DNA of 64,000 nucleotides from Patulibacter minatonensis DSM 18081. Its GTDB lineage: Bacteria > Actinomycetota > Thermoleophilia > Solirubrobacterales > Solirubrobacteraceae. The position numbers and the translations under genes are program-made. The notes beneath the pieces were generated by a model. That model was not told the origin of the DNA and made no database searches. It saw only the letters and a program-made list of their open reading frames with translations. This document shows positions 10,237 through 58,028 of the stretch, one piece after another. The number at the start of each line of letters is the position of its first letter. The first letter of the stretch is position 1. The stretch lies in the NCBI RefSeq assembly GCF_000519325.1, contig NZ_KI912613.1, positions 4,720,469 through 4,784,468 on the forward strand. Reading direction: 5' to 3'.

Positions 10237-10264
10237 CCCGCGCCGCCGCTCAGGCGGGCGCGGG
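10237..10264. terminator. GC-rich hairpin between convergent panB and AI-2E-family exporter genes
   Basis: Arms CCCGCGCC-GCC and GGC-G-GGCGCGGG form an 11-bp stem with one bulge around a 5-nt loop. It overlaps the last codons of the exporter gene and lies 13 bases after panB. There is no U-tract, so it is a terminator candidate only. Confidence 0.4.
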
Positions 10265-11407
10265 GGACGCGTCTCCCGGGGACGTCCCCGGGTCCGGCGG
10301 TCCACCCGCCGCGCCGTCGTCGTCGCCCGGACCCTCGGGGTCACCGTCGGGCCCCGCGGCCTCGGCCTTCAGCTCCTGCCGGTATGCCCACCAGGCCTGC
10401 ACGCCGATCTGGAGCGACGCCGCCATCGGCACCGCGAGCAGCGCGCCGATCACGCCCAGGAGGCTGCCGCCGAACAGGACGGCGACCATCACGCCGAGCG
10501 GGTGCACGCCGACGGCGCGCCTCTGGATCCGTGGCTGGATGATCGTGTTCTCGACCTGCTGGTAGACGACCGCCCAGACGACCCAGATGATCGTGGCGGT
10601 CGGGAAGTCGTGGAAGAGCGTGACGATGCCGACGATGACGGCGGCGATCGTCGCGCCGATCATCGGGATCAGGCCGAACAGCGCGACGGTGACGGCCAGC
10701 GGCGCCGCGAACGGCACGCCGAGGATCAGCATCACGACGTACGCCAGCGTGCCGGCGATCAGTGCCTGCAGGACGGCGCCGCCGATGTAGGCACCGACGG
10801 CCGCCGCCATCCGGTCGAGGACCCCGCGGATCCGGTCGGCGTGGTCGGGCGTGCCGATGTCGAGCAGCGCGTCGATCCACCGACGGCCGCTGCCGAGCAG
10901 GAAGATGCTGAGGATCAGGATCGTCACCGCCGCGAAGACGGAGTTGACGATCCCGAGGCCGAGGTCCCCCAGCCACGACGCGGCGTCGCCGACCCGGGCG
11001 GGCAGCTTGTCGGCCTGGTTCTGGAGCTGGTCGACGAGGTCGAAGTCGTCGTCGAGCTTGCGCAGCGTGTCGTTGCCCTGGACGTAGTGCTGGACCTCGT
11101 CCGCGTAGTGCGGGGCCTGGTCGATCAGGTCGCTGGCGGCCCGGACGAGCGGCGGGATCACGATCAGGCCGACGAGCGCCGGGATCAGCAGGACGCCGAC
11201 GTAGACCGCGGTGACGGCGAGCCCCCGCGGCATGTGCTTCTCGAGCCGGCCGACGGGACCGGAGACGGCGACGGCGATGAACCCGGCGATCGCGAGCCAC
11301 GAGAGCGGCCCGCGCAGCAGGTAGATCAGCGCCAGCGCGGCGAGCACCGCGAGGATCGTCAGGGTGGCCGCGAGGACCGTTCGGGGGATGCTGCGACCTG
11401 GTTCCAC
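10250..11407 (-). CDS. AI-2E family (TqsA/YdiK-type) membrane exporter
   Basis: 385-residue permease of the AI-2E transporter family. The N-terminal helix pair (LTILAVLAALALIYLL and WLAIAGFIAVAVS) is followed by PVGRLEKHMPRGLAVTAVY, a characteristic stretch. Then come a helix hairpin, a soluble region of ~80 residues (residues ~95-175), and five to six C-terminal helices including PMIGATIAAVIVGIV and QQVENTIIQPRIQ, a conserved signature. The last ~40 residues are Gly/Pro/Asp-rich. Substrate cannot be assigned from sequence; members export small metabolites or ions. GGAGG lies 5 nt before the GTG start. A TAGCGT at 11435-11440 is a -10 candidate. Confidence 0.85.
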   Translation of the reverse strand: MEPGRSIPRTVLAATLTILAVLAALALIYLLRGPLSWLAIAGFIAVAVSGPVGRLEKHMPRGLAVTAVYVGVLLIPALVGLIVIPPLVRAASDLIDQAPHYADEVQHYVQGNDTLRKLDDDFDLVDQLQNQADKLPARVGDAASWLGDLGLGIVNSVFAAVTILILSIFLLGSGRRWIDALLDIGTPDHADRIRGVLDRMAAAVGAYIGGAVLQALIAGTLAYVVMLILGVPFAAPLAVTVALFGLIPMIGATIAAVIVGIVTLFHDFPTATIIWVVWAVVYQQVENTIIQPRIQRRAVGVHPLGVMVAVLFGGSLLGVIGALLAVPMAASLQIGVQAWWAYRQELKAEAAGPDGDPEGPGDDDGAAGGPPDPGTSPGDASPAPA

Positions 11408-11614
11408 GGGGACCTCCGTCGGTGTGGCGCCCTGACGCTACCGCGGGGCGCCGACGGCGCGATCGGCGGGGTGCCGGCGGCACGGCCGGCGAGGACCGTG
11501 GTGCCGGGGCAGGGCCCGCAACATCAGGTGCAGCGGGGGCCCCCGGGTTGCGGGCCCGGGCGCCGTGCGGGAGAACCGACGGGCCCCGTCATCCCCCACC
11601 CGAAGGAGGCGCGC

Positions 11615-12653
11615 GTGTCCCCCAACGCGTTCCCACGCCGGGCGGTCGTGCTGTGCTGCGCGTGCGCCCTGGCCGCCGTCGCCGCACCCGCCGCCCACGC
11701 CCAGCCGCTGCACCAGGTCGTCGCAGGCGAGAGCCTGTCGCAGATCGCCGCGGTCAACGGCCTCTCCCCCGCCGCGCTCGCGGCCGCCAACGGCGTGCCC
11801 GTCGACGCCCCGATCCGCGTCGGACAGGTCGTCAGCATCCCCGCCCGCGCCGGGGCGTCGGCGCCGCCGGTGACCGACGTCGTCGCGACGCCGGCGTCCG
11901 CGGGGTCCTCCTCCGGCGCCGGGACGGGGACGTCGACCGCCACCACGTCGTCGACCGGCACGGCCGCAGCCGGGTCGTCGACCGGCACGGGCGCAGGCCC
12001 GGCAGGAGCGTCGTCCGCCGGTGGGGTGGTCGTCCGGCCCGGGGGACACGCTGAGCGCCATCGCCGCGCGGGCCGGGGTCTCCGTCTCGGCCCTGGCCGC
12101 GCACAACGGGCTGACCGCGTCCGCGCTGCTGCCCGCCGGTCGACGTCTGTCGCTGCCCGCGGCGGGCGCCGCGACCTCGTCCTCCGAGGCGAGGGGGACC
12201 GCCTCCGCCACGCAGGAGCAGGCTCCCGGTGCCACCGGGGTCGCCCCGAGCTCCGGGGTGCGCGTCAGCGGCTCGCAGGTCGGCTCCGCCGCGGCCGCCA
12301 ACGGCGTCCCGACGGCGCTGGCCCGCGCGATCGCGTGGCAGGAGAGCGGCAACGACAACGGCGCGGTCTCGTCCGTCGGTGCGCGGGGCGTGATGCAGGT
12401 GATGCCCGACACGTGGACGTGGATCGACCGCAACCTCTCGTCGCGGACGCTCGACCCGTCGTCGGCCACCGACAACGTGCAGGCCGGCACGCTCTACCTC
12501 CAACACCTGCTGCAGGAGACCGGCGGCGACCAGGACCAGGCCGCAGCCGCCTACTACCAGGGGCTCTCGTCGGTGCGCCGACGCGGCATGTACGACGACA
12601 CGAAGCGGTACGTGGAGAGCGTCCGGGCGCTGCGGGCGCGGTTCGGCGGCTGA
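11615..12653 (+). CDS. Secreted LysM / SLT lytic transglycosylase, frameshifted by one base at 12041-12045
   Basis: Peptidoglycan-binding and -cleaving secreted enzyme split by a reading-frame change. From a GTG with an excellent AAGGAGG site 5 nt upstream, frame 1 encodes a signal peptide (CCACALAAVAAPAAHAQ), a first LysM domain (HQVVAGESLSQIAAVNGLSP) and a Thr/Ser/Gly linker. It then reaches VVVRPG and a run of five G. Dropping one G continues in frame as PGDTLSAIAARAGVSVSALA, a second LysM, then an SLT domain with ARAIAWQESGNDNGA (catalytic Glu), GARGVMQVMP and AAAYYQGL, ending at 12653. Repaired length is about 345 residues. It could be a sequencing error, a true pseudogene or slippage-prone tract; the 3' half might also be expressed alone from a GTG near 12021. 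Confidence 0.8.
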
Positions 12654-12684
12654 GCCGGCCGGTGCCGGCGGGCGCGCCGGTCGG

Positions 12685-13302
12685 TCAGACCGCCGGACGC
12701 TCCGCCCCGGCGTAGGTGATGCTCCGGATCACCTTCGCCGGGGAGCCCGCCGCGATCGAGAACGGCGGGACGTCGGCGGTCACCACCGAGTTGGCGCCGA
12801 TCACGCTCCGGCGCCCGATGGTGACGCCGCTCGTGACGACGACGTTCGCGCCGAGCCACACGTTGTCGCCGATCCGGGTCGGACCCTTCGTCGTGAAGCC
12901 CTGCCAGGGCACCGGGGTCTCCGGGTCCTCGAACCGGTGGCTGCCGTCGGTGATCAGGCAGCCGTTGGCGGCCATGCAGTGCTCGCCGATCTCGACGAGC
13001 CCCTCGCTGGCGATCATCACGCCCTGGTTCAGGAACGTGCCGCCCCCGATGCGGACGCGGCCGTGGTCGCCGGCGGTGATCCACACCCCCGGCTCGAGGA
13101 AGACCTGCGGCCCGAGCTCCAGTCGACCGTCGAGGAGCATCCCGAGGACGTCGCCGTTGAGCCGCCCGCGGGCGAACGACTCCCGGCGCGCGAGCTCGAC
13201 CGCGAGCCGCGCGCGGTTCCAGGGCCGCTGCGGCCGCGTGTACCACCGCCACTTCGTGACCCACTGCGCCGCGAGGCGCCGGTCGAGCGGCGGGACGGCC
13301 AT
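12685..13302 (-). CDS. Left-handed beta-helix acyltransferase (hexapeptide family)
   Basis: 205-residue acyl- or acetyltransferase of the hexapeptide-repeat superfamily, trimeric in known members. Repeats run from about residue 50 to 195, for example IGGGTFLNQGVMIASEGLVE, IGDNVWLGANVVVTSGVTI and IGRRSVIGANSVVTADVP, with the usual closing AAGSPAKVI. It begins with a ~45-residue helical, basic region. A candidate catalytic His lies in DGSHRF. It is the last of three genes, corA, SRPBCC and this one, separated by only one base from the previous stop. The substrate is unknown. Confidence 0.85.
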   Translation of the reverse strand: MAVPPLDRRLAAQWVTKWRWYTRPQRPWNRARLAVELARRESFARGRLNGDVLGMLLDGRLELGPQVFLEPGVWITAGDHGRVRIGGGTFLNQGVMIASEGLVEIGEHCMAANGCLITDGSHRFEDPETPVPWQGFTTKGPTRIGDNVWLGANVVVTSGVTIGRRSVIGANSVVTADVPPFSIAAGSPAKVIRSITYAGAERPAV

Positions 13303-17586: not shown

Positions 17587-20616
<3,030 letters not shown>

Positions 20617-31807: not shown

Positions 31808-32521
31808 TCAGAACCAGCGGTCGGTGCGCCACGTCCTCTCGGCGAGCCGCTGCCTGACCTTCGCGACGTACTCCTCGTCGCCGAGGTGCCAGCGGCCGGA
31901 CGCCCAGACCCCGACGGAGCCCCAGAGGTCGCCGGCGCGGTAGGGCCGCCCGCGCTCGACCTGGTTCAGCCACGGCTGCTTGCCGCCGTAGTACGCGCGG
32001 AGGATCGCCCCGTAGTAGTCGACGTTGAACGCGGTGTCCTGCGACGTCAGCGGCTCGCAGCAGTGGTACGGACGCCGGATCTGCATCAGCCCGAACGAGT
32101 CGCCGGAGTCGCCGACCGTCGACATGTGCCACCACGACTCGACGGTCGCCACGGCGCGCAGGAGGTCCGGCGACACGCGCCACTTGTAGGCGCCCCACTG
32201 GAGGATCTCGTCGGTCGTCCCGGTGAAGTGCCCCGTCACCCAGCGCTTGTTGGGCATGTCGGAGCGGCTGCGGAAGTCGCGGAGCTGCGCCGCCGTGGGC
32301 ATCGTGTGGTTCGCGGCGTGGTTGTCGGCGCGCGGCTCGAACGACGAGCGCTGCACCATGCGGGCCGCGGCGCGGTCGGTGCGCGGCTCCGCGTGCGGGC
32401 CGCCGGAGATCAGCGCGGCGCCGGCGGGCGACGGCAGCGCGAGGACGACGGCGGCCGCGAGGGCGGGGAGGAGACGGCGCACGGGACGTGCATCGGCGGG
32501 CACGGAGGAGCACTTGAGCAC
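31808..32521 (-). CDS. Secreted SLT-type lytic transglycosylase
   Basis: About 237-residue exported murein lyase. The signal peptide (RRLLPALAAAVVLALPSPAG) precedes a ~60-residue linker. The SLT domain follows, with catalytic Glu in VATVESWWHMSTVGDSG, then SFGLMQIRRPYHCCEPL (two adjacent Cys) and YYGAILRAYYGGKQPW. The GTG at 32521 has GGGAG 5 nt upstream and is chosen over GTGs at 32503 and 32482, all in frame. It would trim peptidoglycan. A short membrane-protein gene is upstream on the same strand. Confidence 0.82.
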   Translation of the reverse strand: MLKCSSVPADARPVRRLLPALAAAVVLALPSPAGAALISGGPHAEPRTDRAAARMVQRSSFEPRADNHAANHTMPTAAQLRDFRSRSDMPNKRWVTGHFTGTTDEILQWGAYKWRVSPDLLRAVATVESWWHMSTVGDSGDSFGLMQIRRPYHCCEPLTSQDTAFNVDYYGAILRAYYGGKQPWLNQVERGRPYRAGDLWGSVGVWASGRWHLGDEEYVAKVRQRLAERTWRTDRWF

Positions 32522-57135: not shown

Positions 57136-58028
57136 CGGCCGAGTTCCTTGCTGTACGTGCGCCGGTAGTCGCGCTCCGCGTTGAGCACCTTCTCGACGTA
57201 GTGCCGGGTCTCGGGGAAGCCGATCCTCGCGATCGTCATCTCCTGCCCCTGCGCGGCGGCCTCGTCCTGCCAGCGCTTGGCGTTCCCCGGGCCGGCGTTG
57301 TACCCGGCGATCGCGAGGACCTGGTTGCCGTCGAAGCGGCGCATCATGTCGCGCAGCCGCCACGTGCCGTACCGGATGTTGACGTCGGCGGTGTGCAGGT
57401 CGCCGATCGCGAAGGTGTTGGCCCCGGACTCCCGTGCGATGTCGCGCGCGGTGTCCGGCGTGACCTGCATGAGGCCGAGCGCGCCGGCGGAGGACTCCTG
57501 GTTGTCCCGGAAGCGGGACTCCGCGTAGATCACCCCGGCGACGAGCGCCGGATCGAGGTCCTTCTCCTTGGCCTGCTGGCGGATGACGTCCTCGTGCTTG
57601 AGCGGCAGCCGGATCTCGTCGACCGCGCCCTCGATCTTGGGCCGCAGCCCCGACCAGGCCAGGGCGCCGGCGCCGACCACGAGCAGCAGGACGACGAGGA
57701 GCCGGCCGAGGCCGCGGACGCGCGAGGCCGGGCGCCGGCCGCCGGAGGCCCCCCGGGCCGCGGGGCGGGGCGCCGGGCGTCGCGGTGCGGCGGACCCGCG
57801 CGAGCCCGACCCACGGGGTGTCGCGGGACGGGGCCCCTGAGCACGCGGTGCGGACGTCCGGGACGCCGACGTCCGGGCGGCGTCCTGCCGGGACCGCGCC
57901 GCCGACGCGCGGGCGGTCGACGACGACCGCGATCCCGACGGACGCGGCACCGCCCGCAGCGGCGCACCCCGCGGTGCGTCCGCGGGTTCGGGGGCCCGGG
58001 GCCTCCGGGCCGGTCCGCTCGCGCTCAC
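57132..58028 (-). CDS. Membrane-anchored lytic transglycosylase (SLT)
   Basis: 298-residue murein lyase. Residues 1-105 are a very basic, Ala/Arg/Pro/Ser-rich disordered cytoplasmic region; residues ~107-127 (GLGRLLVVLLLVVGAGALAW) form the anchor. The SLT domain follows: GVIYAESRFRDNQESSAGALG (catalytic Glu), GLMQVTPDTARDIA and LAIAGYNAGPGNAKRW. GTG start overlaps the coaE stop (GTGA). The long basic tail could interact with DNA or acidic lipids; this is conjecture. Confidence 0.88.
   Translation of the reverse strand: MSASGPARRPRAPEPADAPRGAPLRAVPRPSGSRSSSTARASAARSRQDAARTSASRTSAPRAQGPRPATPRGSGSRGSAAPRRPAPRPAARGASGGRRPASRVRGLGRLLVVLLLVVGAGALAWSGLRPKIEGAVDEIRLPLKHEDVIRQQAKEKDLDPALVAGVIYAESRFRDNQESSAGALGLMQVTPDTARDIARESGANTFAIGDLHTADVNIRYGTWRLRDMMRRFDGNQVLAIAGYNAGPGNAKRWQDEAAAQGQEMTIARIGFPETRHYVEKVLNAERDYRRTYSKELGR

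What the first reader, a model, noticed from the sequence alone, without database searches (positions are those of the whole stretch)
12041..12045. Single-base frameshift in a poly-G run splits a LysM/transglycosylase gene
The upstream frame reads VVVRPG and then loses its LysM character; deleting one of the five G bases restores the PGDTLSAIAARAG LysM sequence and a full SLT domain. Such a tract could be a sequencing slip, a fresh pseudogene, or a contingency (phase-variable) switch for a cell-wall lyase.
Basis: seen in the sequence. Interest (0 to 1): 0.55.

Follow-up and report, generated by a model that had tools for sequence, protein, structure and literature searches.

The report
Frameshifted cell-wall lyase gene, recent
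One extra base splits a cell-wall-cutting enzyme gene that relatives carry whole or lack, so this is most likely an ordinary recent gene breakage (or a sequencing slip), not a genetic switch.

Summary
At 12041-12045 stand five G, and two halves of one gene (signal-peptide-like start, LysM, linker, LysM, SLT lytic transglycosylase) lie in different frames that meet there. Of 60 relatives searched, 22 gave a strong match; all 20 complete ones, three of them congeners, carry the gene in one open frame. None of 21 covering the site has a G run of five. So this is no conserved contingency tract, no conserved recoding site and no gene pair. Runs of five G are commonplace (52 in the window).

Best reading: a recent one-base insertion in a dispensable gene. 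In three of seven congeners the gene is missing between neighbours that elsewhere flank it, and the tree needs three changes within the genus. Eight other SLT-domain matches remain in the genome. Against it: no decay is visible, there are no reads, and the 'single contig' holds 100-N runs that look like scaffold gaps. An assembly error is therefore the serious rival. At least two clear mid-gene shifts were found in 1.264 Mb. Interest is low.

The parts
11603..11609 (+). Shine-Dalgarno-like AAGGAGG, five bases before the GTG start
   Evidence: read; judged by eye
11615..12037 (+). 5' half of the gene: GTG start, signal-peptide-like N-terminus, first LysM (residues 33-76), Ser/Thr/Gly/Ala linker, ...GGVVVR
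   Evidence: signal peptide judged by eye
12038..12045 (+). C3G5 stretch with the +1 frameshift
12041..12045 (+). the five-G run named in the finding
12046..12653 (+). 3' half in the other frame: second LysM, linker, SLT transglycosylase domain with a Glu that aligns to Slt70 residue 478, stop 12651-12653
   Evidence: catalytic role of Slt70 E478 recalled
12046..12715 (+). out-of-frame tail that the upstream frame would add before its stop
   Evidence: 366-aa frame 11615-12715
12021..12023 (+). first possible start (GTG) of the downstream frame; AGGAG at 12004-12008, 12 bases away; its product would lack a signal peptide
10250..11407 (-). left neighbour, AI-2E family transporter, used for the locus comparison
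12685..13302 (-). right neighbour, hexapeptide-repeat transferase, used for the locus comparison

Best explanation
The gene is a secreted two-LysM lytic transglycosylase that has recently taken a one-base insertion in the C3G5 stretch, probably by slippage in replication. Translation from GTG 11615 would give a secreted one-LysM protein with an unrelated tail and no catalytic domain. The SLT half could only start inside the gene, without a signal peptide, so no working enzyme would reach the wall (inferred). The gene is dispensable: it is missing from the same locus in three congeners and eight other SLT-domain matches remain in the genome. Shown: the frame break in the assembly, intact relatives, the absences, the paralogues. 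Inferred: that the insertion is in the cell's DNA, that the absences are losses, and the effect on the product.
For: 20 of 20 complete relatives have two or more LysM plus SLT in one frame. No gene between the neighbours in G003, G004 and G007; the tree needs three changes within the genus. The gene is patchy more widely too: a strong match in 3 of 7 congeners, 16 of 29 other family members and 3 of 24 other members of the order. 9 SLT matches in the own genome, this one included. The other clear mid-gene shift is also in a multi-copy family, WS/DGAT, with eight other matches over most of the profile elsewhere.
Against: No further disabling change was seen, and dN/dS of the 3' half is not raised (0.37-0.46 for pairs with the window, 0.46-0.53 among congeners), which fits an error just as well. 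One genome only, no reads. Twelve 100-N runs in the 1.2 Mb sampled outside the window suggest a gapped scaffold. Authors of a survey of frame transitions expected BLASTp-validated singletons like this to be sequencing errors rather than genuine indels (PMC3711429, passages).
Confidence: 0.6

Rival explanations
1. Sequencing or assembly error: the cell's gene is intact and works as a secreted LysM-SLT lytic transglycosylase.
For: The shift lies in a G/C run in a 75% G+C window; no sign of decay; 100-N runs in the scaffold; a survey expects such singletons to be errors.
Against: Only two clear mid-gene shifts in 1.264 Mb although 2,557 runs of five or more G or C lie there; the detector found 122 of 140 planted shifts. 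Both clear shifts fall in families with other copies in the genome. Two events are too few to weigh much, and five flagged junctions and nine segment ends stay unresolved.
Confidence: 0.34
2. Phase-variable contingency gene: slipped-strand mispairing in the G run switches the lyase on and off.
For: A run of identical bases at the site of the frame break, in a cell-wall gene. Homopolymer indels are reported as phase variation in the actinobacterium M. tuberculosis (PMC11898584, passages), and one C5/C6 tract varies between Neisseria strains (PMC5084427, passages).
Against: 0 of 21 relatives have five G there and one has four. 52 runs of exactly five G in the window. In Neisseria tracts of eight or more were the ones predominantly found variable. 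Absence of the gene in congeners fits dispensability, not a maintained switch.
Confidence: 0.03
3. Programmed or tolerated +1 ribosomal frameshifting: a P-site glycine tRNA can re-pair on GGG after a one-base slip and make the full protein.
For: The G5 run allows re-pairing after a +1 slip (read from the sequence; mechanism recalled).
Against: No relative shows the frame break (0 of 21); a conserved site in a cluster of five or more genes is required of programmed shifts in PMC3711429 Table 1 (passages).
Confidence: 0.02
4. Two separate genes with independent starts.
For: GTG 12021 with AGGAG 12 bases upstream.
Against: The second piece starts inside the linker without a signal peptide; 20 of 20 complete relatives are one gene.
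Confidence: 0.01

Closest known systems
Secreted LysM-containing lytic transglycosylase, Pfam SLT (PF01464) with LysM (PF01476); the nearest SLT-domain match by sequence in the PDB is Slt70 (1sly)
   Same: Domains and order as in the relatives; the Glu at Slt70 position 478 is kept (its catalytic role recalled)
   Different: Split by a frameshift; the match to Slt70 covers the catalytic domain only
Frameshift pseudogene / singleton fs-gene (GeneTack classes, PMC3711429, passages)
   Same: One genome affected, homologues intact, Pfam domains on both sides of the break
   Different: No decay yet, so it cannot be told from a sequencing error
Homopolymer contingency genes (for example in Neisseria)
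   Same: Frame break at a G run in a gene for a cell-wall protein
   Different: Run of five, not conserved, common in this genome, no evidence of length variation

Membership tests
LysM-SLT lytic transglycosylase | LysM and SLT domains over Pfam cut-offs | tested here: met
   in two frames; in one frame in 20 of 20 complete relatives
LysM-SLT lytic transglycosylase | single open reading frame | tested here: not met
LysM-SLT lytic transglycosylase | enzyme activity on peptidoglycan | not testable with these tools
   none
Frameshift pseudogene | intact homologues spanning the break | tested here: met
Frameshift pseudogene | relaxed selection or further lesions | tested here: not met
   also expected if the break is very recent
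Frameshift pseudogene | dispensability of the gene | tested here: met
   absent between its neighbours in 3 of 7 congeners, G006 undetermined
Frameshift pseudogene | lesion present in the cell's DNA | not testable with these tools
   no reads
Phase-variable contingency gene | long or conserved repeat at the break | tested here: not met
Phase-variable contingency gene | tract length varies within a population | not testable with these tools
   no reads or second strain
Programmed frameshift gene | frame break conserved in homologues | tested here: not met
   0 of 21

The most novel reading that the evidence does not exclude
The break is genuine and not silent: slippage on the G5 run, in replication or on the ribosome, gives a mix of a secreted one-LysM decoy and a little full-length lyase, in a genus that keeps discarding this lyase.
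Probability: 0.04. Interest if true: 0.45.

Novelty: new member of a known kind. Interest (0 to 1): 0.14.

Why it matters
Mostly as an ordinary case. If the insertion is real and the absences are losses, the genome was caught at the start of one more inactivation of the same lyase in one genus, at a locus where three congeners already lack it without a recognisable remnant. That is a small example of repeated loss of a redundant cell-wall hydrolase.

Tried and rejected
Conserved recoding, contingency tract and two-gene structure were tested on relatives and rejected. Relaxed selection was tested and not seen. Remnants of the gene in the gaps of G003, G004 and G007 were sought with a lax search: many short matches, the lowest E 0.026 (in G004), none taken as a remnant. 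One search used the upstream frame read on through the break; its tail matched congeners at 52-54% in the shadow frame, against 70-72% for the true frame, and is no evidence for a second coding frame.

The codon-usage HMM was changed once, because its first setting did not flag this site (then); it was trained on the window and the first 20 stretches. Its 20 flagged junctions in 1.264 Mb were sorted by hand: 2 clear (this one and WS/DGAT), 5 at 100-N runs, 6 ordinary gene boundaries, 2 in one Ser-rich stretch whose first frame stays open, 5 unresolved (L125, L191, L198, two in L203). A later check listed 20 more segment ends without a stop at the HMM boundary: 11 have an in-frame stop within 30 bases, 9 do not and were not followed up. 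So two is a lower bound.

A first grouping of the tree counted the outgroups G008 and G011 as carrying the gene although one search shows no strong match in them. Recounted: three changes within the genus, three with G010 added, five with G008 and G011 set as lacking it. Three changes may be three losses, or two losses and a gain.

From recall the relatives look like Thermoleophilia (perhaps Patulibacter), which was not tested. The paper search for Patulibacter with transglycosylase gave one listing, not read.

Full report
What is there. Five G stand at 12041-12045. From GTG 11615 the upstream frame encodes a signal-peptide-like start (by eye), a LysM domain and a Ser/Thr/Gly/Ala linker ending GGVVVRPG. 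The other frame continues PGDTLSAIAARAG with a second LysM and an SLT domain to the stop at 12651-12653. Three congeners read ...VVQPGD(T/S)L in one frame, so the break lies within 12038-12045. Whether the extra base is a C or a G of that stretch cannot be told. As it stands, the upstream frame runs to 12715 with an unrelated tail.

Relatives. The search of 60 relatives plus the own genome gave 22 relative loci with a strong match (L007-L028, E 3.1e-48 or lower): 3 of 7 congeners, 16 of 29 other family members, 3 of 24 others of the order. Two are cut by contig ends (L010, L027). All 20 complete ones have at least two LysM domains and an SLT domain in a single frame (start codons chosen by script, three of them by hand). 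Of 21 that cover the site (L027 does not; L010 has only about a dozen residues before it), none shows a break or five G; one has four G, the others two or three; 12 of 21 read CCC or CCG, GGC, GAC. Thus neither the frame break nor the tract is conserved. In the window 52 runs of exactly five G occur, and 2,557 runs of five or more G or C lie in 1.264 Mb of this genome.

Locus history. The neighbours are an AI-2E transporter (10250-11407, minus) and a hexapeptide transferase (12685-13302, minus). Seven congeners were held. The gene is present in G001, G002 and G005. In G003, G004 and G007 the two neighbours are found side by side, with about 50 to 260 bases between the matches and no recognisable remnant; in G003 and G004 further shared genes lie on both sides, in G007 the AI-2E gene is at the contig end. 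G006 is undetermined: 82% complete, the hexapeptide gene not found, its AI-2E gene not beside the other block genes. G005 has the lyase and hexapeptide genes at the locus, but its best AI-2E match is a 44% one elsewhere. On a tree of nine concatenated proteins (11 taxa, several only partly covered) presence and absence need three changes within the genus; with outgroups G010 (gene present) and G008 and G011 (no strong match) they need five. In G010, of another genus, the gene lies beside the homologue of window 17590-20610 (UvrA by its look; not scanned against a family library), which is a block gene here too, so I read the absences as losses; two losses and one regain are not excluded. The own genome keeps eight other SLT-domain matches, and six congeners searched have 4 to 10 each.

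Selection. Pairwise dN/dS of the 3' half is 0.37-0.46 for pairs with the window gene and 0.46-0.53 among the three congeners; for the 5' half 0.44-0.56 against 0.51-0.74. No relaxation is visible, so the break is very recent or not real.

Assembly quality. A codon-usage HMM that allows frame changes was run on the window and 60 further stretches of 20 kb (1.264 Mb, 1,094 coding segments of 300 bases or more). Of 140 planted single-base shifts in coding segments of 600 bases or more, 122 were found within 250 bases. Twenty junctions were flagged. Two are clear mid-gene shifts without a gap: this gene, and a wax ester synthase/DGAT gene near G000:C1:1835415, whose Pfam match runs on from profile position 116 to 118 across the frames; that family has eight other matches in the genome. 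Five junctions lie at N runs; the rest, and nine unexplained segment ends, are listed in Tried and rejected. All twelve N runs in the 1.2 Mb outside the window are exactly 100 long and some have similar letters on both sides. I read them as scaffold gaps, though the region tool says that withheld stretches also read N. The window has no N. Clear frameshifts are thus rare, but two events cannot separate mutation from error.

Literature. Passages of PMC3711429 give class features for frame transitions. Programmed shifts and switches form clusters of affected genes, programmed ones with a conserved site; singletons are put down to sequencing error or recent indels, and for BLASTp-validated ones errors are expected. 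Passages of PMC5084427 report that tracts of eight or more were predominantly the variable ones in Neisseria, and mention one C5/C6 tract that varies between strains. Passages of PMC11898584 describe phase variation by homopolymer indels in M. tuberculosis, so the mechanism exists in a high-G+C actinobacterium. The abstract of PMC2916853 reports that the youngest pseudogenes of Salmonella are rapidly deleted, which would fit the clean gaps in three congeners.

Verdict. A genuine, recent inactivation of a dispensable lyase gene is most likely (0.6), a sequencing or assembly error is the main rival (0.34), and a switch or recoding is unlikely. Reads would settle it.

Noticed in passing
L201:15390-15420 (G000:C1 near 1835415): A second clear mid-gene frameshift, in a wax ester synthase/DGAT acyltransferase gene: the Pfam profile is matched 37-116 in one frame and 118-263 in the next.
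   Followed up: partly
L126, L130, L197, L198, L203, L204 (two), L208 (two), L209, L213, L215: Twelve runs of exactly 100 N, some with similar letters on both sides: probably scaffold gaps in the one-contig genome.
   Followed up: partly
window 10250-13302 and the same locus in G003, G004, G007: The LysM-SLT gene is missing between its neighbours in three congeners; three changes within the genus on the tree.
   Followed up: yes
L125:15132-15355: A short stretch that by eye looks like the end of a short-chain dehydrogenase, with a frame change: perhaps a gene remnant.
   Followed up: no
window about 57243-57587, minus, and 32075-32191, minus: Two other SLT-domain matches within the window, one strong (88 bits) and one weak (22 bits).
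   Followed up: no
L189:4780-5682, L191:5447-6010, L202:4034-4447: Coding segments of the HMM that end more than 400 bases before their in-frame stop: possible further broken genes.
   Followed up: no
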